From: Cyclobacteriaceae bacterium
Lineage (GTDB): Bacteria > Bacteroidota > Bacteroidia > Cytophagales > Cyclobacteriaceae
NCBI GenBank assembly: GCA_028284125.1
Contig: JANQSI010000008.1
Coordinates: forward strand, 124,001 to 188,000
Length of the DNA: 64,000 nucleotides
Reading direction: 5' to 3'
Below, in pieces: positions 8,244 to 27,935 of the stretch. Numbering within the stretch: position 1 is the stretch's first letter; each line of letters opens with the position of its first letter. The notes beneath the pieces are model-generated. The model was not told the DNA's origin, did not search any database, and saw only the letters and a list, made by a program, of their open reading frames with translations. Both the position numbers and the translations under genes were made by a program.

Positions 8244-8270
8244 TCTATTCATTCATTTAAAAAAATAATC

Positions 8271-9990: not shown

Positions 9991-9993
9991 ATA

Positions 9994-11715: not shown

Positions 11716-11721
11716 TATGAT

Positions 11722-12012: not shown

Positions 12013-12015
12013 GAT

Positions 12016-12438
12016 ATGAAACCAGAAAAATCAAAAGCATCATTCTTAGGTACCGGATGGAGTTTTCCACCTCATTTTTCGAAAGATTCCGGATCGGTAG
12101 AGCTGGTCAGTGAAGCTAAAGATATAGAGGAGAGTATTTCGATCCTGTTGGCGACAGGTCTTGGTGAAAGAGTGATGCAGCCTGATTTTGGGTGTGATCT
12201 CAAGTTTATGCTGTTCGACGAATTGACGGTAACAACTGAGTCCACAATTAAGGAGATGATTGAAACTTCTATACTTTATCACGAGCCCAGGGTAGACTTA
12301 GATAATGTAACAATAGAAAGGAATGAGTTAACTGGGAAAATCACCATTGATGTTGAATACACCATCCGGTCGACTAATGCCAGGAATAATGTGGTGTTTC
12401 CATTCTATTTCACCGAAGGAACTGATGTTAACTTATGA
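12016..12438 (+). CDS. Baseplate wedge protein, gp25/GPW family (Afp9/Pvc9-like)
   Basis: A 140-residue gp25-like protein. FLGTGWSFPPHF at the start and DIEESISILLATGLGERVMQ, then PDFGCDLKFMLFDE are the family's signature; the EExxR-type core is represented by the GERVMQPDFG region. In related systems it starts sheath assembly on the baseplate. It lies 3 bases after the PAAR gene and overlaps the next baseplate gene by 4 bases (ATGA). Confidence 0.94.
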   Translation: MKPEKSKASFLGTGWSFPPHFSKDSGSVELVSEAKDIEESISILLATGLGERVMQPDFGCDLKFMLFDELTVTTESTIKEMIETSILYHEPRVDLDNVTIERNELTGKITIDVEYTIRSTNARNNVVFPFYFTEGTDVNL

Positions 12439-15400
12439 GCTCGAACATCAAATTAACGAATCCATTAAGCCGAGACGGCACAAGCCAATCTAAAAGGTTC
12501 CTTCCTTCGTTGGATCCCGATTACATAAAGTTGGATGAGCGTTCTCAATCCGACCTTATTCAGTTTGCCAAATTATTCGCAAGGGAAATACAGTACTATG
12601 ACTTAGAATATTCCCCTGACGGTGATTGGCAATCCTTTTTCGAAAATCCTGAACGCTCGGATCAGCCGCATATGTCCTTGTTCATGGCCTTTCTGAATTT
12701 GTTTGGAAAAGTACAAGGCCAGTTAAATCAGATGACACGCAGGCATCTGGATTTTTATTTTCAAGATGTACTTAAACTAAAGCGAAAGCCAGCTCAAGAA
12801 GACAAAGTTCACATTCTATTGGAGTGTGCAAAGAATGTCGACAAATTCAAGTTGGACAAATATTCGTTGCTAAGTGCTGGTGAAGACAACCTGGGAAATG
12901 AGTTAAGGTACCGCACAGATAGGGAAATCGTTGTGACTCCAGCATATGTAGATTCCTTAAAATCTATTTTCGTTGATTTTGATAATGAAGCAAGAACTTA
13001 TGCCTCGGATGCAACAAATTCAGCAGATGGATTAGGAAAAGCTTTTTCAGAACCAGGACAAAAATGGAATGCATTTGGTGAAAGCCAAGCTGGGAAAAAG
13101 GATACCCAAAAGACCATGTATGAAGCTTCCCACGGATTCGTCATTAGCTCTCCCATACTTCTGTTGAATGAAGGAATAAGGACCGTAAGAATTACTTTGG
13201 AATTTTCCAATCCCGAAAGCTATGATAGAAAAAAACTGAAGCTCGACGATCTGAAGTTGGAGGCCTTCTTTAGTGGATTAGATGGTTGGAGTGAAGCCAA
13301 GGATGTGCTTGTGTTGAAAGAAGACTCTGATCAACAAATGGTGTTAGAAGTTAAGCTTGGTGTAGATGATGAGTCCATAATACCACTTGGTCAAGATTCA
13401 GACGAATCATTCAATACGAAATGGCCAATGATCAAGCTTCAATGCAAAAAGGACAGCCAGCAATTCGCATATGAATATTTGATGTCATTGAAACTGAAAA
13501 AGGTTTTGATAAAAGCTTCAGTAGAAGGCCTCAGGAATGTGATGTTGCAAAATGATCAGTCAACGCTATCTCCCGATAAACCTTTTCAGCCTTTTGGAAC
13601 CACACCTTCACTGGGATCTACTTTTTACATCGGAAGCACAGAAACATTTTCAAAGAAGCTGGATGAACTCAAGCTCAATATTGAATGGCACGAAATGCCA
13701 GATAGTGATTTGGGACAGTATTACGGAGCATATGTTCCTGATTCAGTGGCTTTGAATAATGATTCTTTTCAAGCAAAAGTGTTTTCTCTTAGCAATAAAT
13801 CCTGGAAAGAAGCTGAGAATAAAATACAACTATTCAATTCCAATGATGCTTCATCAAAACGCCAAATTGTTTTCGAAACGGGCCATGCGCATTTAGTTAA
13901 GGTACATTCAGAAATACTTACCGATGCACTCAAAAGTGCACGGTATTCAAATGATACTCAGTTTGGATTTTTGAAACTGGAGTTGACCAACCCGAGTAAC
14001 TCGTTTAAAGCTTTTGGACACCGACAATATCCTGATGCTTATGCACAGGCAATTCTGAAAAAATCTCAAAATCAGAGTGCTGAGTTACCAAATTCACCCT
14101 ACACACCAACGATCAAATCTTTTTCCATCGATTATGAAGCAAGTCAGGAAATCTTTCTAGACTCGTCGGAGAATAGGGCTTATCCATTCAAGTTTTTCCA
14201 TACCGAGCCGTTTGGGTATGAAGAAAAATCTCTGGACGGATCTGTTTCACTATTCCCAATACAGGATTATGAAGGCAACTTATTCATTGGCATTAAAGAA
14301 CTCAATCCGCCTCAAGATCTTTCATGTCTCTTCCAGGTAGCAGAAGGCAGTAGCGATCCCTCAATGTCTTTGAAAGAAAAAGATATTGAATGGAGTTATT
14401 TATCTGATGAAGGATGGAAGAGCCTGTCTGATCGCGGGAAATTATTTGATTCAACAGGTGGCCTTTTGACTTCCGGAATTATCACGTTCCAAATCCCTTC
14501 CGATGCTAGTGATACTCATTCCCTAATGCCAATTGGGTATCATTGGTTGCGATCGTCAATCAAGAAAGATTCTGGTGGAGTTGCAAGATTCATTGATGTG
14601 CGAGCACAAGCTGTTACCGCAACTTTTGTCAATAACAACAATGATCCACTTCACCTAAGTAAACCCTTAGCGGCAGGAAAAATTAAAGAGCTGATTGAGA
14701 AGCCAGCGGCCATCAAATCTGTACAGCAGCCTTACGCTTCGTTTAACGGCAAGATGGAAGAGCAAAGCAATGCTTTCGATACCAGAGTTAGCGAAAGACT
14801 AAGGCATAAAAACAGATCTGTTAGCATTTGGGATTATGAGCGAATCGTCTTAGAAAAATTCCCATCTATTTATCAGGTCAGATGCATCAATCATACGAGT
14901 AGAGATTCGGAATTTGTACCCGGATCTGTCACGCTGGTGGTGATTCCCAATTTGAGAAATCTCAATGCGACGAACACATTGGAGCCTAAGGTAAGTGCAC
15001 ATATCCTGAATGAAATCAAAGAATACCTTGTTGAGCGAACGTCACCATTTGTAAATATCGAGGTGATCAATCCGGAGTATCAACAGCTACTTCTTGATTT
15101 CAAAGTTGGTTTCCATCCAGAATACGACGCAGGTTTTTACAGTCAGCAGTTAAATGAGGAAATCAAGCGGTTCCTTTCTCCCTGGGCCTACGACGAAGGA
15201 GAGGACATATTCTTCGGAGGCAAAACTTTTAAGTCGGTGGTATTGACATTCGTGGAGCAGCGACCTTATGTGAATTTCGTCAACGATTTCCAGATGTTCC
15301 ACAACATCACCGAAAGTTCAGGAATCGGTAACATGATTATTGGCCGGGATTTTGGCATTAGTGATGAGTGGGGAATTGTCAGAGAGGATTTAGAAGTAGC

Positions 15401-15545
15401 AGAAGCCACCAGTTCCAGAGTGATTTTAGTCTCTTACCCACAGCACGTTATTGAAGTCATCGATCAAGATGATAGCACTTGTCAGGGAGCAAGAGGGCTC
15501 GGAATTGGATACATGGCAGTTGATATAGATTTCAAAGTAAAATAG
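12435..15545 (+). CDS. Baseplate J-like protein (Afp11/Pvc11-like)
   Basis: A 1036-residue baseplate wedge component. The N-terminus (DPDYIKLDERSQSDLIQFAK, then LFAREIQYYDLE) and the C-terminal third (ERLRHKNRSVSIWDYERIVL, then EKFPSIYQVRCINHT; GSVTLVVIPNL; VNIEVINPEYQQLLLDFKVG) match Afp11-type baseplate proteins. The middle 500 residues are variable beta-rich sequence. Together with the Afp12-like protein it should make the wedges that hold spike, sheath and fibres. Translation is coupled to the gp25 gene. Confidence 0.9.
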   Translation: MSSNIKLTNPLSRDGTSQSKRFLPSLDPDYIKLDERSQSDLIQFAKLFAREIQYYDLEYSPDGDWQSFFENPERSDQPHMSLFMAFLNLFGKVQGQLNQMTRRHLDFYFQDVLKLKRKPAQEDKVHILLECAKNVDKFKLDKYSLLSAGEDNLGNELRYRTDREIVVTPAYVDSLKSIFVDFDNEARTYASDATNSADGLGKAFSEPGQKWNAFGESQAGKKDTQKTMYEASHGFVISSPILLLNEGIRTVRITLEFSNPESYDRKKLKLDDLKLEAFFSGLDGWSEAKDVLVLKEDSDQQMVLEVKLGVDDESIIPLGQDSDESFNTKWPMIKLQCKKDSQQFAYEYLMSLKLKKVLIKASVEGLRNVMLQNDQSTLSPDKPFQPFGTTPSLGSTFYIGSTETFSKKLDELKLNIEWHEMPDSDLGQYYGAYVPDSVALNNDSFQAKVFSLSNKSWKEAENKIQLFNSNDASSKRQIVFETGHAHLVKVHSEILTDALKSARYSNDTQFGFLKLELTNPSNSFKAFGHRQYPDAYAQAILKKSQNQSAELPNSPYTPTIKSFSIDYEASQEIFLDSSENRAYPFKFFHTEPFGYEEKSLDGSVSLFPIQDYEGNLFIGIKELNPPQDLSCLFQVAEGSSDPSMSLKEKDIEWSYLSDEGWKSLSDRGKLFDSTGGLLTSGIITFQIPSDASDTHSLMPIGYHWLRSSIKKDSGGVARFIDVRAQAVTATFVNNNNDPLHLSKPLAAGKIKELIEKPAAIKSVQQPYASFNGKMEEQSNAFDTRVSERLRHKNRSVSIWDYERIVLEKFPSIYQVRCINHTSRDSEFVPGSVTLVVIPNLRNLNATNTLEPKVSAHILNEIKEYLVERTSPFVNIEVINPEYQQLLLDFKVGFHPEYDAGFYSQQLNEEIKRFLSPWAYDEGEDIFFGGKTFKSVVLTFVEQRPYVNFVNDFQMFHNITESSGIGNMIIGRDFGISDEWGIVREDLEVAEATSSRVILVSYPQHVIEVIDQDDSTCQGARGLGIGYMAVDIDFKVK

Positions 15546-15552: not shown

Positions 15553-17673
15553 ATGGGCAAGCAAACCAGGACACATTTAAAGGAAAAATTCAACGATGGT
15601 AAGAAGCCAACGGGAAAAGATTTTTCAGACCTGATTGACTCGTTTGTGAATCAAGAAGATGATAAAGTGGGGGTCGGTGAGAATGGAGTGCACATTCCAG
15701 ATGAGGTCGCCATTGGAACAGAAATTCCCAACGAAAAGCTGACCATTGATGGTGCGATTAGCTTAAGGGAATTGCAATCATCTCCGAATGCTACCAATGG
15801 TTTTGGGAAGTTGTATGTTAAGGAGGAGAAGTTGGTGAGTGCTGAGTTTGATGGAAATGATAGCTATATAAGCATGCCATCACTCGACATAGCAGATGTT
15901 AGAGATTTTACTATTGGCACATGGTTTAAAGTTGATCAAAAAACTACTGGTATTCGATTTCTTGTGGATTTACGCAAGAAGTCGGTTAATACAGCAGCTT
16001 TGAGGTATACAATAAGAGAAAATGGACAATGCCAGATTGAACATTTTGTGGAATGGCCACAGGAAGGAAGCAGCTCAAGATTTGCGGAAGGCGTAGGATT
16101 CATTTTTGATGAATGGCATCATACAGCATTAGTACGCAAAGGAGGAGAACTTCAGGTTTTTTTTGACGGCAAGATGATATCGAAAACACCTGCCTCTGGC
16201 CCAATTAATGTTGATAAGCCAATCCCATGGAATTCAGCTTGGAAAGTAAATAATCACTTTTTGGGCGATTATGGTCAAATAGGTCAGATTGATGAACTAG
16301 GTCTTTGGACTCGAGCCTTAGATCTGGAAGAGGTCAAAAGCATTTTTCTTGCAGGACGTGATCTTGACTTACGAGAAAAATATAACAATGAGTTTGTCAG
16401 TTACTGGCGAATGGGAGATGGAGAGATTCAAAATGGCACAATCACGGATCAAATCGAACCCAGTAGAAAAGGTACCCTTAAAAATGTCAGCTTTTATGAA
16501 GAGAAAATAAAGGCACTCCACTTTCGAGATAGTAGTGGTAGTGAGGTGGTACTTGGAGGAGGAAGTTCGCTGGGAAGCGGTTCTGCTGGATCGGTTTGGA
16601 GTAAAAACGGAGGTGACATTTTTTATGAAAGTGGAAATGTTGGAGTGGGTGCTTCAGAAATTGATCTTGGAAACGGAGAGGGTATTTTCATAAAAGCAAA
16701 TACTAAAGGGAATGCAAAGGTTGTACTGGAAAAAGGTGAAGCATCTGGTGGAATCAATGTTAGTGATGATGCGAATGGTTTATACCTCAATTCTGATCGT
16801 GGAATATCATTTTATCCCAATAATAAACAGGCTGCAACCATAACATCTGATGGAAATCTGGGAATGGGCACTGCTTCACCGGCAAAAGATTTTCATATTC
16901 AAGGACACAATTCAGCACCTTTTGTTAACGACGGGAATGATCGGCCTGGAATAGCAATTACTGGTCATTATCCGGAATTAACATTGTTCAGTTCAATGAA
17001 TAATCCTAATCATGGTCCTACGATAAGAATGGGAGGCTATAGTGATGATTCAAAAAACTCTTTTAAACATTGGGTAATCGGTACTTCAGCAAGAAACTCC
17101 TCCTTCTTGGATATAGGAATTGGTCATCTTAATGATCCAAATCCCCATGCAGGAATAAGAAATTATATGGGTAGGACTGTTTTGATACTTAACGAGAATG
17201 GTAGCGTTTGGGCTCAAACGCGCACTGGTGGCCGAGCAGATTATGCTGAATATTTCGAATCAAAATCTGGCAAGTCACTAGAAGATGGAGTTTCAGTTGT
17301 CCTGGATCAAGGAAAAATAAGACCCGCTAAAAAAGATGAAACCCCGATAGGAATAATCTCCACAAGCCCTGTAATGTTAGGCAATTCTCCTAATGAATGG
17401 CCTGAAAAATACTTGATGGATGATTTTGGAAATATTTTGATGGAACCAGCTAAAAAGTCTAAGAAAGGAGATAAAAACCCACTTCCGGAAATACCCAAAC
17501 TCAATCCAAAATACGACCCTAAGAAAGAATATGTGCAAAGATCGGATCGCCCTGAATGGAACATTGTAGGACTACTTGGTCAATTGCCTATGCGAAAGGG
17601 TCAACCAGTAGCCCCATCATGGGTTAAGATCAAGAATATTTCAAAAGATGTAGAACTATGGTTAGTTAAATAG
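15553..17673 (+). CDS. eCIS fibre 1: anchor module, LamG type A, Peptidase_G2-like tip
   Basis: A 706-residue fibre. Residues 5-45 are the first, most diverged copy of the shared anchor (KEKFNDGKKPTGKDFSDLID). Residues about 92-280 are a LamG/concanavalin-like lectin domain (type A: KLVSAEFDGNDSYISMPSLD, DEWHHTALVRKGGELQVFFDG). Fibre-shaft repeats of the NVGVG/NLGMGTASP type follow. Residues about 555-706 resemble Peptidase_G2, the self-cleaving domain of phage neck appendages (GGRADYAEYFESKSGKSLED, ETPIGIISTSPVMLGNSPNE, EKYLMDDFGNI). It should bind the target surface; autoproteolysis after trimer folding is the family expectation, not shown here. First of five fibre genes in a row. Confidence 0.82.
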   Translation: MGKQTRTHLKEKFNDGKKPTGKDFSDLIDSFVNQEDDKVGVGENGVHIPDEVAIGTEIPNEKLTIDGAISLRELQSSPNATNGFGKLYVKEEKLVSAEFDGNDSYISMPSLDIADVRDFTIGTWFKVDQKTTGIRFLVDLRKKSVNTAALRYTIRENGQCQIEHFVEWPQEGSSSRFAEGVGFIFDEWHHTALVRKGGELQVFFDGKMISKTPASGPINVDKPIPWNSAWKVNNHFLGDYGQIGQIDELGLWTRALDLEEVKSIFLAGRDLDLREKYNNEFVSYWRMGDGEIQNGTITDQIEPSRKGTLKNVSFYEEKIKALHFRDSSGSEVVLGGGSSLGSGSAGSVWSKNGGDIFYESGNVGVGASEIDLGNGEGIFIKANTKGNAKVVLEKGEASGGINVSDDANGLYLNSDRGISFYPNNKQAATITSDGNLGMGTASPAKDFHIQGHNSAPFVNDGNDRPGIAITGHYPELTLFSSMNNPNHGPTIRMGGYSDDSKNSFKHWVIGTSARNSSFLDIGIGHLNDPNPHAGIRNYMGRTVLILNENGSVWAQTRTGGRADYAEYFESKSGKSLEDGVSVVLDQGKIRPAKKDETPIGIISTSPVMLGNSPNEWPEKYLMDDFGNILMEPAKKSKKGDKNPLPEIPKLNPKYDPKKEYVQRSDRPEWNIVGLLGQLPMRKGQPVAPSWVKIKNISKDVELWLVK

Positions 17674-17675
17674 TT

Positions 17676-18593
17676 ATGCCTAAAAAAAGTAGAGAAGCAC
17701 TAAAGCAGTTTTTTGAAACCGGAGATACGCCAACTTCCTCCGATTTTGGAGATCTCATAGACTCAACGATCATTTCGGAAGATGATGGAATATGGGCATC
17801 AACCGGAAAGCTTGGAATTGGAGTTGAAGATCCGAAAAATGCACTCGAAGTATATGGCGATACAAGGATAGGAAAAGGCTTAAACCAAGAGGATATAGTA
17901 CCTGTGGATGGACTACTGGTTCAGGGAGATGTTCGAATCGGCAGACAAGAAGCGCCATCTAAACTTGAATTATCAGGAGAATTACTTTTCTCAGGAAGCA
18001 CACCAGTGAACAAAGTCTCTAAAAATCTTGATCAAACTGAAGTTTCCGATCTTTCCTTACCTACAGAAAAAGCAGTCAAGACGTATGTTGATAATGTTAA
18101 AGACTATGTAGATGAATTATTGATCGGCGCTGTAATGGCATTTGCTATGACCGGACCTCCGGAGGGTTGGCTGGCGTGTAATGGTCAAGCAGTGAGCAGA
18201 GAAACTCATCAAAGACTTTATAAAAAAATTGGAACGCAATTTGGAGCTGGGAATGGTTCTACGACATTCAATGTACCTGATATAAGAGGTGAATTTGTAA
18301 GAGGTTGGGATGGCGGTCCAGGAGGGAGTCGAGGTGCCGATCCTGACCGAAATGGAAGAAGAACTCGAACTGGGCATACAGGAAATTACTTAGGATCATA
18401 CCAGGGTCATATGTTCCGGCATCACGGTCATAATATTAACACTAGACAGGATGATTGGAATGTGAGTGGAGGCAGTGGGCCTTCATGGGGAGCAGATAAT
18501 GGACCTTATAGAGCTTACCATGGAGTTGCTGGTAACGGAGGCAATGAAACACGGCCAAGGAATATTGCACTGCTCTATTGTATCAAAACCTAA
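17676..18593 (+). CDS. eCIS fibre 2: anchor module with gp12-like tail collar tip
   Basis: A 305-residue fibre without LamG. Residues 5-40 are the anchor (LKQFFETGDTPTSSDFGDLI). A short shaft of LGIGVEDPKNALEVYG-type repeats follows, then a helical stretch around residues 115-145. Residues about 148-215 are the phage tail collar domain (VMAFAMTGPPEGWLACNGQA, TTFNVPDIRGEFVRGWDGG). The tip is Gly- and His-rich (TGHTGNYLGSYQGHMFRHHGHN) and ends NETRPRNIALLYCIKT, a C-terminus common to collar fibres. In phage T4 gp12 paired HxH motifs hold a metal inside the trimer, and the His pairs here may do likewise. It lies 2 bases after fibre 1. Confidence 0.88.
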   Translation: MPKKSREALKQFFETGDTPTSSDFGDLIDSTIISEDDGIWASTGKLGIGVEDPKNALEVYGDTRIGKGLNQEDIVPVDGLLVQGDVRIGRQEAPSKLELSGELLFSGSTPVNKVSKNLDQTEVSDLSLPTEKAVKTYVDNVKDYVDELLIGAVMAFAMTGPPEGWLACNGQAVSRETHQRLYKKIGTQFGAGNGSTTFNVPDIRGEFVRGWDGGPGGSRGADPDRNGRRTRTGHTGNYLGSYQGHMFRHHGHNINTRQDDWNVSGGSGPSWGADNGPYRAYHGVAGNGGNETRPRNIALLYCIKT

Positions 18594-18603
18594 CTACATA
18601 GAA

Positions 18604-19212
18604 ATGTACATTGTAAGAGACATTGAAAGTAAGAAGATCCTTCATTTAAACCCGGCACCAATTTCCCAGGAATTGAGGGAAAAGGACATTTATGGAGACT
18701 TTGATCCCGCAACAATGGAGATTGGAAAAACGGATGGAGAAATTCCCGATCAGTTTGAGATCAATCAATATGGTTTTATAGAACCCCAGGATTCTCAAGA
18801 AATCGAAGAAATTGGTGCCTATGAAATACCATCAGATGAAACTGGCTATCAATTGGATGAACCTTTTGAATACCTGGAGGATGGTGAGGTAGTGAATGCA
18901 TCAATCGAGAAGGTTGTTGAGAAAGGTCTTATGACAACTTCAGAACACTGCATCAAAGCATTGAACAGGTTGAATAAAATTATGGGACACAGGATCAGCC
19001 TTGAATACAATGCTGGTTATGAAATGAAGCTTACAAAAAACTATTTGTCCTGGCTAAAAGATGGTCAACCAGAAAACGATGATAGAGAAAAGGATTTCAA
19101 TCAAATGCAGGAAACCATTGACAAAATCAAAGAGGATCATAAGGAGCTTAAACAGAAAATAGAAGAACGGCAGGTTGAAATTGAAAAGAAAATTAAAACA
19201 GGAGGTAATTGA
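18604..19212 (+). CDS. Unknown fibre-cassette protein (possible fibre assembly chaperone)
   Basis: The ATG at 18604 gives 202 residues; the upstream extension overlaps fibre 2 out of frame and is not credible. I do not recognise the family with certainty. Residues 1-45 (MYIVRDIESKKILHLNPAPI, then YGDFDPATMEIGKTD) look like small phage tail-region proteins. Residues 50-100 are very acidic, and the last 50 residues are a charged coiled coil (MQETIDKIKEDHKELKQKIE). It lies 10 bases after fibre 2 and its stop overlaps the start of fibre 3. Position and composition suggest an assembly helper or adaptor for the neighbouring fibres; this is inference. Confidence 0.7.
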   Translation: MYIVRDIESKKILHLNPAPISQELREKDIYGDFDPATMEIGKTDGEIPDQFEINQYGFIEPQDSQEIEEIGAYEIPSDETGYQLDEPFEYLEDGEVVNASIEKVVEKGLMTTSEHCIKALNRLNKIMGHRISLEYNAGYEMKLTKNYLSWLKDGQPENDDREKDFNQMQETIDKIKEDHKELKQKIEERQVEIEKKIKTGGN

Positions 19213-21059
19213 TGGAGGAAAAACCAAGAGCCGAGATCAAAAACTATTTCGAGACAGGGGATACACCAACTTCCAGAGATTTCGCAAGTCTCATAGATTC
19301 ATCGATCAATAAGTTGGATGATGGAATCTTTGTTCAAAATCAAAAAGTAGGATTGGGGACGCAAGATCCGAAAAATAAGCTTGAGGTTGCCGGATCCTTG
19401 ACTGTCGGTTCTACCTATGTTGGAAAGGAAGAAATAGGGAAAAACAATCTCTCCATAGAGGGAAGTCTTGGAGTGGGCACCACTGCTCCCAAAAACAAAT
19501 TGGATCTGTCAGGTTCAGGTGTAATCGGAGAAACGTATGCTGGAAATGTAGAGGCTCCCAAAAATGGACTTACGATAGAAGGAAATCTTGCAGTCGGCAC
19601 TTCATCAAATAATGAGAAGTTGACCGTTGGTGGGGTACTCAGCCTTAGTGAGCAAGAAGGCTCTCCTTCTGTAAGCGATGGGTTTGGTAAACTCTTCGTA
19701 AAAAAGGAAATCGTGAGCAGCATCAAATTCAATGGTGAGGATAACTACCTGGAATTGAACCACGACCTTCATAGACTTAACTCCCTCAAGACTGGCACTA
19801 TTAGTTTGTGGTATCGACCATCGGATGAAGAAACCAGAACACAACAACTCATTTGGCGGGGCCCCGATTTAAACTTTCAGATGGGAATTGGTCCATGGAC
19901 TTCAGGCTATGAAGACGAATGTTTAATGGTGGGGATTTCCAAGGAAGGTGGTCATGAGCTTGGTTTCTACCTTCAACGAGGACACAATTTTTTTGCAGAG
20001 AATAAATGGTACCACATAGCACTGGTTATCGGCACCAATTTCAATAAGTTGTTCATTGATGGAGTTGAGCAAGAAGTTACCTACACCGTTGGTCGACCTG
20101 ACACAGGCAATATTTTCTTCGACCAAAACCCAGATAGTGTTGATCCATTGGTCATTGGTAAGCGAAATCACGAAGGAAATGCTCAAAACTTTATTTCAGG
20201 ATATTTAGATGAGATTGCGATCCTTGATCAACCCTTGACGGGATGGGATATTAAAGAGCTGTTTGAAAAGGAACGTAAGTACGATTTAAAAACTAAATAT
20301 GAAACATCGCTAGTGGCTTATTGGCGAATGGGAGAGGCTAGAGAACTACCAGAAATTCCTGATTATTCAAGGAATAATTTGGATGCTGTATTAAAGGGAA
20401 CAATTGTTGAAGAACAGTCATCGGAAGAAGTCAATAGCAATACACTCCAACGCAGGAATGTGAGCAGTCTTTACTTCAAAGACAGTGAAGGGAATGAAGT
20501 TCCTCTGTCAGGCTCGCTGGCTGATAGATCCACTCAATCACTTTGGGGAAGAAAAGGTGAGGATATTTATTATGAAAGTGGCAGTATCCATGTAAATGGA
20601 AGGCTATCAAGTCAAAAAAATCAAATACAGAGAGATTTTGCCACTTGGTTCACTACTAATGGAACAACTGAGCCTATTCATATAAAGACGAACATCAAGG
20701 TAAGATCAAATATTATGTACAGAATCTTGGTTGAAGGATACAACTATGGAGTATCCATGCCAATCAATACAGAGATTGTAGGGTATACATGGAATCGTCC
20801 TCCTTATGATAAGGTATATAAATCCATTCAGGAAGAGATTCAAGGTAATTCAATCGTGAGGGAAGGTTTGTGCAATCATGCACCTGGAACTACCATTTCC
20901 CAATACATCGGTAGTGATGGATTTGTTGTGATTAAACTACATGCAGCTTCGTTCTACTATGTTGGATTTTCAGTCTCTGCTTGGTTTACAAATCCGACTC
21001 CTGGAAATGGGTTCGAAATAGAGGCATTGTCAATACGACATGCTTCTGGAAATTATTGA
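19212..21059 (+). CDS. eCIS fibre 3: anchor module, LamG type B, unknown tip
   Basis: I place the start at ATG 19212, which overlaps the previous TGA. The product has 615 residues. Residues 5-45 are the anchor (IKNYFETGDTPTSRDFASLI). Three shaft repeats follow (GLGTQDPKNKLEVAGS, GVGTTAPKNKLDLSGS, AVGTSSNNEKLTVGG). Residues about 165-375 are LamG type B (FNGEDNYLELNHDLHRLNSL, WYHIALVIGTNFNKLFIDGV). The last 150 residues (HIKTNIKVRSNIMYRILVEG, IVGYTWNRPPYDKVYKSI) form a separate domain that I cannot name; it should be the receptor-binding tip. Closest relative in the cassette is fibre 5. Confidence 0.82.
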   Translation: MEEKPRAEIKNYFETGDTPTSRDFASLIDSSINKLDDGIFVQNQKVGLGTQDPKNKLEVAGSLTVGSTYVGKEEIGKNNLSIEGSLGVGTTAPKNKLDLSGSGVIGETYAGNVEAPKNGLTIEGNLAVGTSSNNEKLTVGGVLSLSEQEGSPSVSDGFGKLFVKKEIVSSIKFNGEDNYLELNHDLHRLNSLKTGTISLWYRPSDEETRTQQLIWRGPDLNFQMGIGPWTSGYEDECLMVGISKEGGHELGFYLQRGHNFFAENKWYHIALVIGTNFNKLFIDGVEQEVTYTVGRPDTGNIFFDQNPDSVDPLVIGKRNHEGNAQNFISGYLDEIAILDQPLTGWDIKELFEKERKYDLKTKYETSLVAYWRMGEARELPEIPDYSRNNLDAVLKGTIVEEQSSEEVNSNTLQRRNVSSLYFKDSEGNEVPLSGSLADRSTQSLWGRKGEDIYYESGSIHVNGRLSSQKNQIQRDFATWFTTNGTTEPIHIKTNIKVRSNIMYRILVEGYNYGVSMPINTEIVGYTWNRPPYDKVYKSIQEEIQGNSIVREGLCNHAPGTTISQYIGSDGFVVIKLHAASFYYVGFSVSAWFTNPTPGNGFEIEALSIRHASGNY

Positions 21060-21072
21060 AAAAATAAAAATC

Positions 21073-21279
21073 ATGAATACAATCAAATTACAACTCACAC
21101 TTGAAGAAACGAACCTAATCCTAAATGCCTTGGGTGATCAACCTTACAAACAGGTGTTTCAATTGATTCAGTCACTGCAGCAACAAGCAGCCCAACAGAT
21201 TGAATCCGAGAACAACCCTGATGTTTCGAAAAAGAATGGGAAATCAAAAATTAAGCAAAATGGGCAGCTAGTTAACTAA
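21073..21279 (+). CDS. Small conserved phage-like protein of unknown function
   Basis: A 68-residue protein starting at ATG 21073. The pattern LQLTLEETNLILNALGDQPY, then KQVFQLIQSLQQQA recurs in many phage and Bacteroidota accessory loci that I have seen, always as a short helical protein without known function. The tail is Lys/Asn-rich and probably disordered. It sits between fibre 3 and fibre 4, 13 bases after the first. It may bind the fibres or the baseplate, but nothing in the sequence proves that. Confidence 0.7.
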   Translation: MNTIKLQLTLEETNLILNALGDQPYKQVFQLIQSLQQQAAQQIESENNPDVSKKNGKSKIKQNGQLVN

Positions 21280-21303
21280 TTGGTAGCAGACAACCCTTGA
21301 ACC

Positions 21304-22971
21304 ATGGCAACACAAAACCGATCGAAGCTAAAGCAATATTTTGAAACAGGAGATACACCTTCCTCTTTAGAATTTGCCAACCTAATTGATTCTACCATCA
21401 ATAAGCAGGATGATGAGGTTTTTGTAAAAAACCAAAACATCGGACTTGGTATTGAAACCCCTAAAAACAAACTGGATGTATTTGGAGAAGGTGTGATTGG
21501 TGAGCGCTATGCAGGACAAGCGTCTGCACCTGAAAATGGCTTGTTAATTCAAGGGAGGTTGGGAGTAGGGACGACAAATGCGAATGAAAAACTAACGATT
21601 GATGGATCTGTAAGTCTGCGTGAATTGGAAGCCGCTCCAGAGGCGAGTTCAGGTTTTGGAAAACTGTATGTAAAAGAAGATAAGCTGGTTAGTGCAGAAC
21701 TCAATGGCGAAGACAGTTATATGAGTATGCCATCCCTCGGTATTGCTGATGTACATGATTTTACAATTTGTCTATGGTTTAAGGTACTGCCTGGAAAACA
21801 GTCAAGACACTATTTGGTTGATTTTAGAGGTGATGGCTCAAAAGTGGCCCATAGCTGTGGCTTGCTAATTGATGAGGTAGGAAATGGTACTGCTGTTCTT
21901 GGTCATTATTCCGTCTGGAATGCGAATGAAAATACTTCTTTCCAGGAAAATGTTGGAAGAATCTTTGGTGATTGGCACCATACTGTACTTTCAAGAAAAG
22001 GAGACAAGCTGACTGTTTTTCTTGATGGGAAAATGGTGTCTGACCAACCAACCCTAGGAGGTGCGGTGAAGGATAGTTCCATACCCTGGAACAACAAATG
22101 GCGAATTGGTACATTTTCTGGAAGTACGAATGAAGGTGGCAATTATTGGATGAAAGGATCGCTCGATGAAATTGCCTTATGGACAAGGGCATTAAGTCAG
22201 GAAGAAATAATGAATGTTTTTCTTGCGGGCAGAGGAATTGACCTTAGAGATAAATACGAAAATGGATTGAAAAGCTATTGGAGGATGATTGAGAGCGACC
22301 AGCTAAGCGACTCGAGCATCCATGATCAGATGGATGCAAGTAGAAAGGCTGTTCTACATAATGTTAGTTTTCATTTGGATACCATAAAAGCACTACATTT
22401 TGTAGATAGTAACGGCAATGATCAGATATTAGGGGGTAGTGGTTCTGTTGGCGCTAGAACTACTGGACCTGTATGGAATCAGAAGAGTAAAGCCATTTTC
22501 TATGAAACTGGAAATGTTGGAATTGGAACGGTAAATCCAACCACACATTTAGATGTAAATGGCTTTATAACAAAAAAAGAAGTAGCGTTTTCTTGTCAGA
22601 GTGAAAGTCACGTCTCAAGCGGTTCGGATAAACGTCTGAGTTACAATAATACGTCAATCAATAGTGGAAAATGTTGGGATGGTAAACGATTTACCGCTCC
22701 TGTTAAAGGATTGTATTTTTTCACCATGTCCTATGTGAGAGACGCCTACTACAAAGGTGGTACCTCGGATGATATCCAAGTTTGGATAAGACTTAATGGA
22801 GCCAATAAAGCATCAGCATGGACTGGACAAGGAGACGGAAAAAGAGCTACGGCTACTTGCAATGTCATATTTAATATGAAGAAAGGAGATTTTGTTGAAA
22901 CGTATGTGACGTCTGATGGAGGAGAAAAACGTTACTTGCGTCGCTGTTATTTAAGTGGATTTAGGTTATGA
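21304..22971 (+). CDS. eCIS fibre 4: anchor module, LamG type A, C1q-like tip
   Basis: A 555-residue fibre. Residues 5-45 are the anchor (LKQYFETGDTPSSLEFANLI). Shaft repeats (LGIETPKNKLDVFG, GVGTTNANEKLTIDG) come next. Residues about 125-310 are LamG type A, close to that of fibre 1 (KLVSAELNGEDSYMSMPSLG, DWHHTVLSRKGDKLTVFLDG). Residues about 425-555 match the C1q/TNF jelly roll: VAFSCQ at the start, KRFTAPVKGLYFFTMSY, IQVWIRLNG, NVIFNMKKGDFVETYV and the closing YLSGFRL. C1q heads form trimers, which suits a fibre tip, and bind proteins or sugars. The first 57 bases match those of fibre 5 at 49 positions. Confidence 0.85.
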   Translation: MATQNRSKLKQYFETGDTPSSLEFANLIDSTINKQDDEVFVKNQNIGLGIETPKNKLDVFGEGVIGERYAGQASAPENGLLIQGRLGVGTTNANEKLTIDGSVSLRELEAAPEASSGFGKLYVKEDKLVSAELNGEDSYMSMPSLGIADVHDFTICLWFKVLPGKQSRHYLVDFRGDGSKVAHSCGLLIDEVGNGTAVLGHYSVWNANENTSFQENVGRIFGDWHHTVLSRKGDKLTVFLDGKMVSDQPTLGGAVKDSSIPWNNKWRIGTFSGSTNEGGNYWMKGSLDEIALWTRALSQEEIMNVFLAGRGIDLRDKYENGLKSYWRMIESDQLSDSSIHDQMDASRKAVLHNVSFHLDTIKALHFVDSNGNDQILGGSGSVGARTTGPVWNQKSKAIFYETGNVGIGTVNPTTHLDVNGFITKKEVAFSCQSESHVSSGSDKRLSYNNTSINSGKCWDGKRFTAPVKGLYFFTMSYVRDAYYKGGTSDDIQVWIRLNGANKASAWTGQGDGKRATATCNVIFNMKKGDFVETYVTSDGGEKRYLRRCYLSGFRL

Positions 22972-23007
22972 CCAAAAAGTAGCTTAGGTATAAAAGAAAG
23001 ATAGACT

Positions 23008-24951
23008 ATGGCCACCCAAAACCGATCGGAACTAAAAAAATACTTTGAAACAGGTGATACACCTACCTCAAAGGATTTTGCCGACTTGATAGATTCATCG
23101 ATAAATCTATTGGAAGATGATATCTCGGTCGCCAATTCAAAAGTAGGATTAGGTGTAACCAAACCAGTCAACAAGTTGGATATAGGTGGTAATATGGCGA
23201 TTGGAACAAACCTCTCTGGCAACATGCAAGCTCCACCCAACGGATTAGCTATTGAAGGAAATTTATCTGTGGGCTCAACTCAGTCAAATGAAAAGTTGAC
23301 CATTGATGGTGTAATAAGTTTAGCTGCACAAGAAGGTTCGCCCTCTAAAACCAACGATTTTGGAAAGCTCTTTGTAAAAAAGGAAAAAATCACAAGCATT
23401 CTTTTCAATGGTTCTGACAATTTCATTGAGATCAATCAAAATCTGGAAGCATTAGAAACTCTAAAACAGGGAACATTAAGCATGTGGTATAAGCCGTTTG
23501 ATGGTGAATTGAGACCACAGCAGCTGATTTGGCAAGGTACCGGAGCTTACTTTCAAATTGGAATCGGTGAATGGACAAGCAGCTTTGAAGACGAGAGTTT
23601 GGTGGTTGCTACCTATAAAAATCAAAATGCTCACTCTGCTTCTTATTTGCGAAAGGGTGTCAATTTTTTCACGAAAAATCAATGGTACCACATTGTTGTT
23701 ACTGTTGGAGAAAGTTTCACCAAAATGTTCATTGACGGAATAGAACAGAGTGTAACTTATACAAGTGGTAATGCTCAAACCGGCCATCAATTTCTCAATG
23801 GAGCAGCCGGTGAACCCCTCTTTATTGGCAAAAGAATTTTAAACAAAGATCCCAATATGTTTGTCAAAGGGTTCATTGATGAAGTTTCTATCATCGATCG
23901 ACCACTTTCTAGCTGGGATGTAAAGAAGTTATATGATGGTGGTCGACGGATGGACTTAAGAATGTCGCATGGATCTAATCTTGTTGCTTATTGGCGCATC
24001 AATGAAACGGATGACTTGCCTACCATCAAAGACCACTCAGGAAACGGACTCCATGGCACTTTTAAAGGAACAATCGACGAAAATACACTTTCGACCAATG
24101 AAGTGAACACCCTTTACTTTAAGGATGGTGACGGAAATGAACTTCCGCTTTCCGATACCTCGCAAGCAGGTTCCGTTCGTTCATTGTGGGGACAAAAGGG
24201 ATCAGATATTTACTTTGAAGACGGAAGAGTTGGTATTGGCACATCTGATCCAAAAGCTCACCTTCACTTATACAAGGATAAATACACTTTGCATGGGCCA
24301 AACACGACATGGGGAGCCTATTTGCAAGTAGGAGGTAATGGAAGAGTAACCGATCATGCATCAGTTGTTGCTACCAATGGAAACCTTCACCTTGATTCAA
24401 GAAATGGAAATTATCAAACTTATCTAAACTACTATAGCCAGGGACATACTTATATTAACACCAGGGGTGGGAATGTAGCAATTGGAACAGGTAGTCCAAG
24501 TCATAAACTACATGTCAATGGAAATGTTAAGGCGGATAAATTTTTTGGTCAGTTAGCCTCCAACAACAATGCATATCGCTTGATACTTCAAGACGATAGA
24601 AACCTGGTGATTTATCAATCTTCCGGACCGGTATGGGCTAGCAACACTCATTTATCAGACGAACGATTGAAAACGAATTTAAGACCTGTTAAAAAGCAGC
24701 TTGATTTACTTGACAAAATTGAGGGTTTTGAGTTCAGCTGGAAGGATCAATCACTGGGAAAGGAACTAGAATTCGGATTGAGTGCTCAACAGGTAGAAGA
24801 GGTCTTTCCTCATCTAGTTAAGGAAATCAATGGGAGAAAGTTTGTGAAATACCAATCTTTCATTCCGGTACTCATAGAAGCCATAAAATCTCAACGTAAA
24901 GAAATAGATGACCTGAAGAGATTTTTGAAAAACAAGTCAACAGAATCCTAA
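23008..24951 (+). CDS. eCIS fibre 5: anchor, LamG type B, bulb-lectin motif, S74 chaperone
   Basis: A 647-residue fibre. Residues 5-45 are the anchor (LKKYFETGDTPTSKDFADLI). Residues about 128-340 are LamG type B (FNGSDNFIEINQNLEALETL, QWYHIVVTVGESFTKMFIDG). Shaft repeats (VGIGTSDPKAHLHLY, VAIGTGSPSHKLHVNG) follow. Gln528, Asp530, Asn532, Val534 and Tyr536 spell the QxDxNxVxY signature of bulb-type mannose lectins. From Ser550-Asp551 (LSDERLKTNL) to the end is the S74 intramolecular chaperone (GLSAQQVEEVFPHLVKE; coiled-coil end), which in endosialidase-type fibres folds the trimer and then cuts itself off before that Ser. The lectin motif would be left at the exposed end. Confidence 0.88.
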   Translation: MATQNRSELKKYFETGDTPTSKDFADLIDSSINLLEDDISVANSKVGLGVTKPVNKLDIGGNMAIGTNLSGNMQAPPNGLAIEGNLSVGSTQSNEKLTIDGVISLAAQEGSPSKTNDFGKLFVKKEKITSILFNGSDNFIEINQNLEALETLKQGTLSMWYKPFDGELRPQQLIWQGTGAYFQIGIGEWTSSFEDESLVVATYKNQNAHSASYLRKGVNFFTKNQWYHIVVTVGESFTKMFIDGIEQSVTYTSGNAQTGHQFLNGAAGEPLFIGKRILNKDPNMFVKGFIDEVSIIDRPLSSWDVKKLYDGGRRMDLRMSHGSNLVAYWRINETDDLPTIKDHSGNGLHGTFKGTIDENTLSTNEVNTLYFKDGDGNELPLSDTSQAGSVRSLWGQKGSDIYFEDGRVGIGTSDPKAHLHLYKDKYTLHGPNTTWGAYLQVGGNGRVTDHASVVATNGNLHLDSRNGNYQTYLNYYSQGHTYINTRGGNVAIGTGSPSHKLHVNGNVKADKFFGQLASNNNAYRLILQDDRNLVIYQSSGPVWASNTHLSDERLKTNLRPVKKQLDLLDKIEGFEFSWKDQSLGKELEFGLSAQQVEEVFPHLVKEINGRKFVKYQSFIPVLIEAIKSQRKEIDDLKRFLKNKSTES

Positions 24952-27935
24952 TGCCTCAAAACCTGACTATATCGAAATCACCACCACCTCACCAAAGCAT
25001 GGATTACAATGCTTTGCGAGAAGAAGGGATTCGGAAAATTCAAGAACTCGCAGGTGAAGTCTGGACAGATTACAACCTTCACGATCCGGGAGTAACAATA
25101 CTCGAAGTACTGTGCTACGCCATCACTGAACTTGGTTATCGAACAAATGCCAACATTGAAGACATCCTTGCAGATAATACTGATTTTGATACGTACCAAA
25201 ACCAATTTCTTACCGCTGGACAGATTTTACCGAACGCACCATTGACAACAGAAGACTATAGGAAACTTGTCATTGATTTACCAGGCATTCGAAATGTGTG
25301 GCTCGGCAAAGCAGATCGTGAAGAGGTAGGGTTGTATTGGAACGAAAAAAACCAAACACTCAACATTGAAGGAGGAGAAAAAATGCCTATCAATGGGTTG
25401 TATGATGTTTTGCTTGAGTTTGAGGAGCACGAATCGTTAGGAGATCTCAACAACAACATTTTTAAACGCACTCTGTCTGGAGGTATTGAAATAGAAGTAG
25501 CATTTCCATTTTGGGATGAAATAGACAACATGTTCAAGTCGGAAATCGATTTGGAAAAAATCTCCATCAAAATCAAGGATAATGAACTCAAACCATTCAC
25601 AGATAACCTTGAACAGGATTACTACGCATTGTTAGAGATCCAAAATAAAAAATCCGGAAAAACGCTCACCTCAATTGGAGCCCGTATCAAATTAAGCGGT
25701 CAGGAAAAAGAACTAACCACTCAAGAAGAATCAAAGCTCAAGGCAGAACTTAAAAAAACAAATTCCTCAAGCCTCATAAGTACGCTGAACTCGCGGTTGA
25801 TCGAAGTGGCTGAATTGGTCGAAAATGTAAAATCGCTTTTGCTTCAATACAGAAACCTGTGTGAAGATTTCTTTCAATTCAAAGCAGTAAGAGTCCAGGA
25901 AATCGCACTTGATGCGAAGATTGAGATCTCATCCAGTGCAGACGCCAATCAAGTATTGGCTCAGATATTTTTTGAAGTCTACAAGTATTTTTCTCCGGAG
26001 CTTAAGTTCTACACGTTGGAAGAACAATTAGCCAAAGGCCTATCACCAGATCTAATCTTTGATGGTCCGAGCCTTATGCACGGATTTATAGATTCAGAAG
26101 AGCTGAAACGTCTTAAAAATAGAAGTGTTATCTATTGCTCAGACCTGGTGCATTTGCTTATGAAAGTGGAAGACGTAGTAGCTGTGATGGATCTGGAAGT
26201 AAGCAATTTTATCAATAACAAAGTACTGGATTCCGGCATTCGCAACTGCTTGAAACTTCCACTGAGTAATTTGTACAAACCCGTACTTAGCACTGATAAG
26301 TCTGCATTGAAGCTTGAGCGAAACGGTGTTATTCCATCGATTGATCGGGAAAAGGTTGAAGAACTTTTTGAAGAACTCAAAGAACAACATAAAAGAAAGC
26401 GTCCGGATCCAAAGCTGTACGATATTCCAATTCCGACGGGGCAGTCTCAGAATCTTGCAGACTATTATTCTATCCAACACGATTTCCCTGCTGCTTATGG
26501 ATTAGGCCAAGATGGCATTCCAAAAAGCGAGACCAGGGAAAGAAAAGCCAAGGCACTCCAACTGAAAGGCTATCTGCTTTTCTTTGAACAGATCTTAGCC
26601 AATTACCTGACTCAACTGGCTCATGTGCGTGATTTGTTCTCGCTCGACACATCAATCAAGAATACCTATTTTGTTCAAACCCTGGAAGACGTTCCAGAAG
26701 TATGCATGCTGGTCGGCTCTTTTGTTAAAATTCTTAAAAAGAAAAAAGTTGACTTTGAAAACTCATCCAGAATTGAAAGAGAGTGGGAAGCATTTTTGAA
26801 AGCACAGCAAGACGATCTTCACAAAGAAATTCAAAAAGCTACGGAAGAAAAAGCAACGTTTCTCGATCGAAGAAATCGATTCCTAGAACATTTATTGGGA
26901 CGCTATGGCGAAGATTTAGGTGAGTATTCAAGGTTGGCTACTCTGGTAGAAGAAAAGAGTAAAAGCGTCATTGAAGACAAAATTTCACTACTCGCCGAAT
27001 ATCCGAACTTCAGCAGCAATCGAGGGCAGGCCTACAACTACTATTTGCTTAATGAAAAGAAACTGCCAGATGTCTGGAATACACAAAATGTATCAGGGTT
27101 TGAAAAAAGAGTCAGTGCACTTTTAGGCATAGATAATTACCATCGCCGATGGCTTTCAGGAGATGCCACCAATTACATGTTCAGATATCAGGAAGAAGAT
27201 GATGACAACATTGATGAGTTTCGATACCGGATCGTGGATGGAAGAGGACAAATTCTGTTAAGCAGCCCATGGAAATTTATGGATGAAGAAGAATGTGCTA
27301 AGCAGCAGCAAGAAGTGGTTAAGTATGGCGGCACAAGAACAAGATACAAACACAAGAAAGGAAAAGATGGTCGATACTATTTCAATCTGGTAAACGACAA
27401 TAACAAAATCATTGCAAGACGAATAGAACCATTTGATTCGGCAAGCGAAGCAAAAGCTGAAATCAGCAAAGTGGTTCAATTCTTCAGAGACCAGAAGGAA
27501 TATCAGGAAGGCTTCTATTTGATTGAAAATGTGTTACTTAGACCGAAGCATCCATCCAACAAAACTTCACCATCTCAATTGCTATCCGTCGATATTGACT
27601 ATAGTAACTTGGTAAAACCAGTACCAATCAATCCATACTCGTTTTGTGTAACACTGATTTTTCCAGGTTGGTCAAAGAAGCTCGCTCAACCAGAGTTCAG
27701 AATGTATGCCGAGCGAGTAATTAGAAGTGAAATTCCTGCCCATATTTTCCCGGAAATCTACTGGCTAGACCGATCGACTTTTGAAAAATTCGAAGACACC
27801 TATCTTGACTGGCTTAATGTAAATACGCTATATCATCAGCCCGGTTCCAAGACAAAAGCTAGTGAATGGGATGACGCTACAGAAACATTAACAAACCTTA
27901 TCAATCAAATACGTTCTGATTTGGAAAATGACTAG
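24951..27935 (+). CDS. Afp12/Pvc12-like baseplate protein
   Basis: A 994-residue baseplate wedge protein. The N-terminal segment EEGIRKIQELAGEVWTDYNL, then HDPGVTILEVLCYAITELGY is the hallmark of baseplate J-like proteins of the Afp12 type. The central region has long charged helices (residues about 590-690) and the C-terminus contains PYSFCVTLIFPGWSKKLAQP and IRSEIPAHIFPEIYWLD, also typical. It should pair with the Afp11-like product in the wedge heterodimer. Its ATG shares a base with the stop of fibre 5 and it overlaps the tape measure gene by 8 bases, so fibres, wedge and ruler form one transcript. Confidence 0.88.
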   Translation: MPQNLTISKSPPPHQSMDYNALREEGIRKIQELAGEVWTDYNLHDPGVTILEVLCYAITELGYRTNANIEDILADNTDFDTYQNQFLTAGQILPNAPLTTEDYRKLVIDLPGIRNVWLGKADREEVGLYWNEKNQTLNIEGGEKMPINGLYDVLLEFEEHESLGDLNNNIFKRTLSGGIEIEVAFPFWDEIDNMFKSEIDLEKISIKIKDNELKPFTDNLEQDYYALLEIQNKKSGKTLTSIGARIKLSGQEKELTTQEESKLKAELKKTNSSSLISTLNSRLIEVAELVENVKSLLLQYRNLCEDFFQFKAVRVQEIALDAKIEISSSADANQVLAQIFFEVYKYFSPELKFYTLEEQLAKGLSPDLIFDGPSLMHGFIDSEELKRLKNRSVIYCSDLVHLLMKVEDVVAVMDLEVSNFINNKVLDSGIRNCLKLPLSNLYKPVLSTDKSALKLERNGVIPSIDREKVEELFEELKEQHKRKRPDPKLYDIPIPTGQSQNLADYYSIQHDFPAAYGLGQDGIPKSETRERKAKALQLKGYLLFFEQILANYLTQLAHVRDLFSLDTSIKNTYFVQTLEDVPEVCMLVGSFVKILKKKKVDFENSSRIEREWEAFLKAQQDDLHKEIQKATEEKATFLDRRNRFLEHLLGRYGEDLGEYSRLATLVEEKSKSVIEDKISLLAEYPNFSSNRGQAYNYYLLNEKKLPDVWNTQNVSGFEKRVSALLGIDNYHRRWLSGDATNYMFRYQEEDDDNIDEFRYRIVDGRGQILLSSPWKFMDEEECAKQQQEVVKYGGTRTRYKHKKGKDGRYYFNLVNDNNKIIARRIEPFDSASEAKAEISKVVQFFRDQKEYQEGFYLIENVLLRPKHPSNKTSPSQLLSVDIDYSNLVKPVPINPYSFCVTLIFPGWSKKLAQPEFRMYAERVIRSEIPAHIFPEIYWLDRSTFEKFEDTYLDWLNVNTLYHQPGSKTKASEWDDATETLTNLINQIRSDLEND

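What the first reader, a model, noticed from the sequence alone, without database searches (positions are those of the whole stretch)
15553..24951. Five-gene fibre cassette with one shared anchor and five different tips
Five consecutive fibre genes start with the same ~40-residue module (FETGDTPTS..F..LIDS) and end in different domains: Peptidase_G2-like, tail collar, unknown, C1q-like, and lectin+S74. Afp and PVC usually carry one or two fibre genes. A common socket with varied heads suggests a particle carrying several specificities, or a set from which particles draw. I know of no description of an eCIS with this arrangement.
Basis: partly seen in the sequence, partly recalled or inferred. 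Interest (0 to 1): 0.9.

Follow-up and report, generated by a model that had tools for sequence, protein, structure and literature searches.

The report
Five-headed fibre cassette of bacterial syringe
A bacterium's toxin-injecting syringe carries five genes for attachment fibres that share one plug but end in different heads, which is a rich example of an arrangement already described in print rather than a new kind of system.

Summary
Five open fibre genes (F1-F5, 15553-24951) lie between the Afp11-like and Afp12-like baseplate genes of an eCIS locus, and all begin with one ~40-residue module (leave-one-out E 8e-12 to 2e-22). Corrections: two small ORFs interrupt the run; similarity reaches ~101 residues in all pairs and ~365-510 in four, which share a LamG lectin domain; Peptidase_G2 and S74 are probably assembly chaperones, not heads.

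The module matches residues 1-39 of Anabaena Cis13 (PDB 7b5h, E 2e-8), whose N-terminus binds the baseplate; the entry has 18 Cis13 and 6 Cis11 chains, i.e. one trimer per wedge. In 32 of 38 selected eCIS loci the module gene sits directly between Afp11 and Afp12. A related MAG keeps the order and shows a sixth module. Orthologous pairs have pN/pS 0.12-0.39; the distal part is replaced in F5 and apparently in F1.

Best reading: five co-expressed fibres compete for six equivalent sockets, giving multi-specific particles. Mixed occupancy is not shown. Nachmias et al. 2026 already report such anchors (eBAP2) and up to five fibres per locus: a new member of a known kind.

The parts
15553..17673 (+). 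F1 fibre, 706 aa: anchor, beta-repeat linker, LamG_3, middle region, Peptidase_G2 C-terminus
   Evidence: anchor 41-49% identical to F2-F5
17676..18593 (+). F2 fibre, 305 aa: anchor, linker, phage tail Collar domain; no LamG match
18604..19212 (+). 202-aa ORF of unknown function after the collar fibre; two long C-terminal helices predicted at mixed confidence (10-residue blocks 48-85, mean of whole model 57.6)
   Evidence: homologue found only in the sister MAG (L048); none in 294 other class genomes or in viral contigs
19212..21059 (+). F3 fibre, 615 aa: anchor, linker repeats, LamG_3, beta-rich tip of unknown fold (tip about 20574-21056)
   Evidence: poor model, mean pLDDT 48; tip relative in G192 at 54% identity
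21073..21279 (+). 68-aa ORF, recurrent fibre companion: a homologue lies 5-84 bp after a fibre gene in 11 of 38 related loci scanned
21304..22971 (+). F4 fibre, 555 aa: anchor, linker, LamG_3, C1q tip
23008..24951 (+). F5 fibre, 647 aa: anchor, linker, LamG_3, shaft, Peptidase_S74 C-terminus
15553..15675 (+). anchor module of F1 (FNDGKKPTG variant)
17676..17798 (+). anchor module of F2
19212..19334 (+). anchor module of F3
21304..21426 (+). anchor module of F4
23008..23130 (+). anchor module of F5
12435..15545 (+). Afp11-like baseplate wedge; best PDB sequence match Anabaena Cis11 (All3317); candidate socket for the anchors
   Evidence: E 1.6e-155
24951..27935 (+). Afp12-like baseplate wedge; best PDB sequence match Anabaena Cis12 (All3315); the other candidate socket
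   Evidence: E 2.1e-133
6234..12438 (+). eCIS core upstream: Pvc16_N, sheath, two gp19 tubes, DUF5908, CIS_tube, VgrG-like, PAAR, gp25
27928..34414 (+). eCIS core downstream: CIS_TMP, AAA ATPase, eCIS_core (DUF4157) protein with a DNA/RNA non-specific endonuclease domain (candidate payload)

Best explanation
F1-F5 are five receptor-binding tail fibres of one eCIS. Each probably forms a trimer. Its N-terminal ~40 residues (a Cis13/eBAP2-type anchor) plug into the wedge formed by the Afp11-like and Afp12-like proteins. By homology with Anabaena there is one trimer per Afp11, so six equivalent sockets per particle, and the five fibres must share or compete for them. All five lie in one closely packed unit with the two wedge genes, with no + strand terminator-like site between them, so they are expected to be made together. 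LamG lectins plus distal heads (C1q, collar, the F3 beta tip, and regions ahead of the G2 and S74 chaperones) would give particles, or a mixed population of particles, several surface specificities for delivering the downstream nuclease-type payload. Shown here: five open genes, one module, eCIS context, homology of the anchor to a baseplate-bound protein, recurrent position, purifying selection, replacement of the F5 distal part. Inferred: trimers, six shared sockets, co-expression, mixed occupancy, receptors.
For: Module profile hits PDB 7b5h All3316 residues 1-39, E 2.1e-8, 18 chains; All3317/Cis11 has 6 chains and is the best PDB match of this Afp11. Weiss et al. (PMC8894136, passages read): All3316 is Cis13; the N-terminal domains of its trimer bind the baseplate, and the Cis11 C-terminal extension contacts it. 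The module gene lies directly between Afp11 and Afp12 in 32 of 38 loci, which were chosen for having eCIS genes or came from the family survey. Sister MAG: same order F1..F5 and same small ORFs; pN/pS 0.16-0.39 for the fibres; anchors of orthologues 80-98% identical, of paralogues within the window 41-68%. F5 aligns over residues 1-424 at 71% and then only in a 32-residue piece. Promoter-like sites at chance level (37 found, 37.2 expected) and no + strand terminator-like site in 15553-24951.
Against: No expression or particle data. The Cis11 C-terminal extension that contacts Cis13 is not matched by this Afp11: local alignments end near residues 957-963 of 1036, so the exact socket is not confirmed, and PMC12923769 models put most anchors on Afp12. 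The module is not peculiar to eCIS: with window proteins as queries (E<=1e-4), 47 of 59 genome-contig loci and 70 of 70 viral loci showed no homologue of the 15 window proteins in the DNA held. F1's divergent anchor, kept as such in the sister MAG, could mean a second kind of socket. The six-socket count is by homology only. Purifying selection does not prove simultaneous expression.
Confidence: 0.72

Rival explanations
1. Homogeneous particles from a menu: each cell or condition makes mainly one fibre kind, so particles are uniform but the population or life cycle draws from five.
For: Phage precedent of alternative fibres (recalled). No call bears on expression.
Against: No inverted repeats of 20 nt or more in 15000-25500; all genes on one strand; no + strand terminator-like site between them and promoter-like sites at chance level; no match to the Bacteroidota-type pattern TTTG-N17..23-TANNTTTG (recalled pattern) in the window, 3.65 expected by chance. 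These consensus scans are weak evidence.
Confidence: 0.2
2. Division of labour: different anchors use different sites (for example F1 on one wedge surface, F2-F5 on another), like the long and short fibres of myophages.
For: F1's anchor is distinct (41-49% to the others) and its distinctness is kept in the sister MAG (83% F1 to F1r; 39-51% F1r to the other window and sister anchors). PMC12923769 suggests eBAP2 may also use Pvc11 besides Afp12. F2 is short and lacks LamG.
Against: All five match the one non-self profile about equally (E 6e-22 to 4e-20); no tool here models complexes.
Confidence: 0.25
3. Redundant duplicates in decay, with only one or two fibres functional.
For: F1, F3, F4 and F5 are evident paralogues sharing ~365-510 residues.
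Against: All are open; pN/pS well below 1 for every orthologous pair at high or saturated synonymous divergence; order kept in the relative.
Confidence: 0.05

Closest known systems
eBAP2-anchored eCIS tail fibres and multi-fibre eCIS loci (Nachmias et al. 2026, PMC12923769)
   Same: ~50-aa N-terminal anchor with varied C-terminal domains including C1q and S74; present in Bacteroidota, Pseudomonadota and Cyanobacteriota; fibre genes beside Afp11/12; multi-fibre loci with up to five fibres
   Different: Direct membership could not be tested because the eBAP2 model was not at hand. This locus has LamG domains shared by four fibres, Peptidase_G2 and Collar members, and a relative that shows six anchors on two contigs
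Anabaena thylakoid-anchored CIS Cis13 (All3316), PDB 7b5h
   Same: homologous N-terminal module; its gene number lies between those of cis11 (All3317) and cis12 (All3315); best PDB matches of this Afp11 and Afp12
   Different: Cis13 is a single 154-aa protein ending in a predicted transmembrane helix that anchors the system to the thylakoid membrane, not a receptor-binding fibre
AlgoCIS (Alg19 fibre) of Algoriphagus
   Same: related Afp11/Afp12-type baseplate; one homotrimeric fibre at each of six vertices (PMC13314943, passages)
   Different: a single large fibre with shoulder and neck domains at its N-terminus, not the short module
Ackermannviridae phages with several tailspikes
   Same: several receptor-binding proteins with differing heads on one contractile tail allow several receptors
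   Different: the tailspikes form one branched complex; here there is one common plug (search listing with starts of abstracts only)

Membership tests
eCIS (Afp/PVC/AlgoCIS-type) | sheath, tube, spike/PAAR, gp25, Afp11/Afp12 baseplate, CIS_TMP, AAA ATPase, Pvc16_N and a DUF4157 protein in one locus | tested here: met
   Pfam; PDB relatives of Afp11 and Afp12
eCIS (Afp/PVC/AlgoCIS-type) | particle released and active outside the cell | not testable with these tools
   needs purified particles; the locus could in principle be an anchored CIS, although none of F1-F5 has a 19-residue hydropathy peak above 1.32
eBAP2-anchored eCIS fibres | short (~50 aa) N-terminal module followed by diverse fibre domains | tested here: met
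eBAP2-anchored eCIS fibres | match to the published eBAP2 profile | not testable with these tools
   profile is in supplementary data, which could not be read; module taxonomy (Bacteroidota, Trinickia, Shewanella, a cyanobacterium) agrees with the paper
eBAP2-anchored eCIS fibres | locus with Afp11 and Afp12 and without Tail_P2_I | tested here: met
   both present; no Tail_P2_I listed for the 20 locus proteins scanned (at E<=0.1, at E<=0.001)
eBAP2-anchored eCIS fibres | helical-bundle fold of the anchor bound to the baseplate | tested here: inconclusive
   homology to Cis13 residues 1-39; no structure of this anchor was predicted, and complexes cannot be modelled here
Multi-fibre eCIS locus | more than one fibre gene with a baseplate anchor in the locus | tested here: met
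   five copies

The most novel reading that the evidence does not exclude
A combinatorial injection system: five (six in a relative, if its two contigs adjoin) fibre species with interchangeable plugs are drawn at random onto six equivalent sockets, so that one cell releases a population of mosaic particles with many head combinations, while heads are swapped beyond conserved anchors and lectin shafts between species.
Probability: 0.35. Interest if true: 0.72.

Novelty: new member of a known kind. Interest (0 to 1): 0.45.

Why it matters
It is a natural set of heads for one plug, at the upper end of what has been reported, with a relative whose fibres show where heads can be exchanged. The homology to Cis13 ties a sequence-defined anchor to a solved baseplate contact, so the question whether one eCIS particle carries several fibre kinds can be put to a direct test.

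Tried and rejected
Helper-gene idea: fibres without a self-chaperoning tip (F2, F3) each have a small ORF behind them, F1, F4 and F5 have none. Rejected as a rule: a homologue of the 68-aa gene follows an S74 fibre in L168, and L168's collar fibre has no small gene listed behind it. The 202-aa ORF was found only here and in the sister MAG (none in 294 other class genomes; none in viral contigs).

F3 tip: no Pfam or PHROG match at E<=0.1 to its last ~160 residues, no PDB match of whole F3 at E<=1, no match in phages or viral contigs; one relative in 294 other class genomes. Its model was too poor to search (mean pLDDT 48, two sequences). The model of the 202-aa ORF (mean pLDDT 57.6) was not searched either.

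Invertible or recombining cassette: no inverted repeats of 20 nt or more; the direct repeats listed are 20-130 nt copies spread over the fibre genes, as expected from the coding similarity.

PDB hits to designed PPR proteins with the module profile (E down to 4.6e-7) are sums of weak repeats, each with i-Evalue above 1000 in the two shown, and were dismissed. Weak hits to a 'Tail fiber protein' (9qgo, 0.001), AfpX13 (0.0036) and an 'Adenoviral fiber protein' (0.16) fit a distant tie to the Afp13/Pvc13 type but prove nothing.

dS was saturated for F2, the F1 C-part, the 202-aa ORF and Afp11, so the ratios quoted are of uncorrected proportions.

Multi-copy module arrays in Tenacibaculum were set aside as evidence on eCIS: none of the 15 window proteins used as queries had a homologue in the DNA held for them, and the one Baseplate_J gene in L070's genome lies about 320 kb away on the same contig.
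Full report
WHAT IS THERE. The window comes from a Bacteroidota genome (its closest named relative in the scan is a Cyclobacteriaceae MAG). It holds an eCIS locus: Pvc16_N, sheath, two gp19-type tubes, DUF5908, CIS_tube, VgrG-like spike, PAAR, gp25, Afp11-like, five fibre genes, Afp12-like, CIS_TMP, AAA ATPase and a DUF4157 (eCIS_core) protein with a DNA/RNA non-specific endonuclease domain. The five fibre genes fill the place between Afp11 and Afp12. Gene ends are close: Afp11 stop 15545, F1 start 15553; F1 stop 17673, F2 start 17676; F2 stop 18593, small ORF 18604; F3's ATG overlaps that ORF's stop at 19212; F3 stop 21059, second small ORF 21073-21279; F4 21304-22971; F5 23008; F5 stop and Afp12 start overlap at 24951.

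IS THE SHARED MODULE REAL. Yes. A profile built from 42 modules of other genomes and viral contigs (48 rows of A3 minus 6 from this genome or the sister MAG) picks exactly F1-F5 out of 581 open stretches of the window (E <= 4.2e-20, next best 0.82); leave-one-out profiles find each omitted copy (7.7e-12 to 2.3e-22). No sixth copy shows in the held genome at E <= 1. The five anchors share 12 invariant residues of 41. No Pfam or PHROG match listed for the fibres has its best stretch in residues 1-30 (for F2 and F5 only the best 25 PHROGs were listed).

WHAT THE FIBRES ARE. F1: LamG_3 and C-terminal Peptidase_G2. F2: Collar, no LamG. F3: LamG_3 and an unassigned tip. F4: LamG_3 and C1q. F5: LamG_3 and Peptidase_S74. 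BLASTP between them aligns residues ~1-101 (F2 with F3, F4, F5; 42-44%), ~1-140 (F1 with F2; 28%), and ~365-510 residues among F1, F3, F4 and F5 (26-48%). So four fibres share anchor, linker and lectin, and differ beyond. From general knowledge (recalled, from no call), Peptidase_G2 and S74 domains are C-terminal chaperones that cleave themselves off after trimer folding; if so here, the working heads of F1 and F5 lie ahead of them.

WHERE THE MODULE SITS IN A PARTICLE. A profile of 48 modules hits chain AE of PDB 7b5h (All3316, residues 1-39) at E 2.1e-8. Weiss et al. (PMC8894136; passages read) identify All3316 as Cis13, a tail-fibre-like trimer whose N-terminal domains bind the baseplate and which is contacted by the C-terminal extension of Cis11. 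The entry holds 18 Cis13 chains and 6 Cis11 chains, i.e. one trimer per wedge. The window's Afp11 and Afp12 have Cis11 and Cis12 of the same entry as best PDB matches (E 1.6e-155 and 2.1e-133). Against a simple transfer: the local alignments of Afp11 end near residues 957-963 of 1036, so the Cis11 extension itself is not matched.

POSITION IN RELATIVES. 38 loci were examined: 29 of the 30 loci from the family survey (L009-L037; L008 is this genome) and 9 genome-contig loci picked because one search showed eCIS core genes in them. In 32 of the 38 the module gene has Afp11 and Afp12 both within 362 bp (overlaps included). Of the other six, L009, L019 and L024 show Afp11 near with no Afp12 seen in the short stretch, L010 and L011 show neither, and L042 (Shewanella) has both genes but not adjacent. 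The 32 include Bacteroidota, two Trinickia and a cyanobacterium. In ten such fibres scanned, tips were S74 (2), FGE-sulfatase-like (1), Gp10_C (2; one below the curated cut-off, the other with a Collar match just below cut-off), and none or insignificant (5). In the family sample, 33 of 148 genomes have the module and 56 of 148 have CIS_TMP. In 4 of those 33 copies stand side by side: G000 (5), G035 (4), G059 (3 and 2) and G002 (2 to 4 on short contigs). In the phylum sample 21 of 395 genomes have a match; their contexts were not examined.

THE MODULE OUTSIDE eCIS. It is not peculiar to eCIS. Of the 59 genome-contig loci, 11 hold a homologue of a window eCIS core protein, one (L048) only of the 202-aa ORF, and 47 none; of the 70 viral loci none does (phmmer with single window proteins, E <= 1e-4, DNA held only). 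Named phages with a match include Flavobacterium phages where the feature is annotated 'structural protein'. So the anchor looks like a general tail or baseplate plug used by phages and eCIS alike; that wider reading is inference.

SISTER SPECIES. Two contigs of MAG IP30a_bin.7 (L038, L048; read apart) carry Afp11 and F1 start, then F1 end, F2, a 235-aa counterpart of the 202-aa ORF, F3, a 69-aa counterpart of the 68-aa ORF, F4, F5 and the start of a further module gene at the contig end. That this is one continuous array is inferred from the broken F1. pN/pS: F1 N-part 0.18, F1 C-part 0.25, F2 0.39, F3 0.16, F4 0.24, F5 0.37 (its part beyond residue 420: 0.81, where the sequences are not orthologous), 68-aa ORF 0.12, 202-aa ORF 0.37, Afp11 0.20 (dS 1.2 or more, or saturated). 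F3 and F4 keep their tips (69% and 66% identity beyond residue 420). F5 is 71% identical over residues 1-424 and then aligns only in a 32-residue piece; the sister's F5 has LamG but no S74 match at E <= 0.01. F1 keeps its first ~310 residues (80%) and residues 508-706 (50%), while between them only a 28-residue piece aligns with what the sister contigs hold; part of the sister's F1 may be missing. F2's collar C-terminus has diverged strongly. So distal parts change while anchors and lectins stay. Orthologous anchors are 80-98% identical, paralogous ones within the window 41-68%; one sister anchor (F4r) is as close to F5 as to F4, 80% each. On the whole the anchors are not being homogenised.

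HOW IT PROBABLY WORKS. Each fibre trimer would be plugged by its anchor into a baseplate wedge; with six wedges and five fibre kinds, either each particle carries a mixture or sites are assigned. LamG, C1q and collar domains are taken to bind glycans or proteins of target cells; binding would lead to contraction and delivery of the downstream payload. AlgoCIS work (PMC13314943, passages read) shows one homotrimeric fibre per baseplate vertex and that fibre binding to a resin alone does not fire the particle. These steps are inferred for this system.

WHAT IS KNOWN. Nachmias et al. 2026 (PMC12923769; abstract, passages, parts 1 and 2 of 4 of Results, and Discussion read) define five anchors; eBAP2 is ~50 aa, placed by the Results in Pseudomonadota, Bacteroidota and Cyanobacteriota (the Discussion words this more narrowly), and is joined to C1q and S74 among others; 23.4% of 2585 fibre-bearing loci have more than one fibre, with five as maximum. 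The present cassette fits that description, though the eBAP2 profile itself could not be applied. A 2023 review (PMC10598620, passages read) notes multiple fibre genes in R-tailocin clusters. What I did not see in the parts read: the link of this anchor to Cis13 by sequence, a LamG shaft shared by four of five fibres, and head replacement between related species at fixed gene positions.

VERDICT. A real, well-kept, five-fibre eCIS cassette: a new member of a known kind at the upper end of the reported range. Interest is moderate because it is a good test case for whether one particle carries several specificities.

Noticed in passing
L048:8149-8363 with L038: The sister MAG shows the start of a further anchor-bearing gene at a contig end, so its cassette has six fibres if the two contigs adjoin; that would exceed the published maximum of five per locus.
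   Followed up: partly
L070:9998-19041: Tenacibaculum array of seven genes with the same module behind a CHAP-domain protein and a phage holin, near an EndoU-type toxin-like ORF and an SMI1/KNR4 immunity-like gene. No homologue of the window's eCIS proteins in the 20 kb held; the next 20 kb on one side was listed as ORFs only.
   Followed up: partly
window:21073-21279: 68-aa gene recurring as a fibre companion, 5-84 bp after a fibre gene in 11 of 38 related loci scanned; function unknown.
   Followed up: partly
window:24951-27935: The Afp12-like protein contains a DUF1508 match (residues 805-841, E 1.6e-6).
   Followed up: no
L043:10001-11125: A cyanobacterial eCIS fibre with the same anchor ends in an FGE-sulfatase-like domain, a fold related to C-type lectins (recalled).
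   Followed up: no
L167:9429-17843: Same-genus relative G035 has a four-fibre locus in which one fibre carries NHL repeats and another YadA-head repeats with Peptidase_G2.
   Followed up: partly
window:30752-34414: DUF4157 protein with a DNA/RNA non-specific endonuclease domain next to the locus; a likely payload, described only.
   Followed up: no
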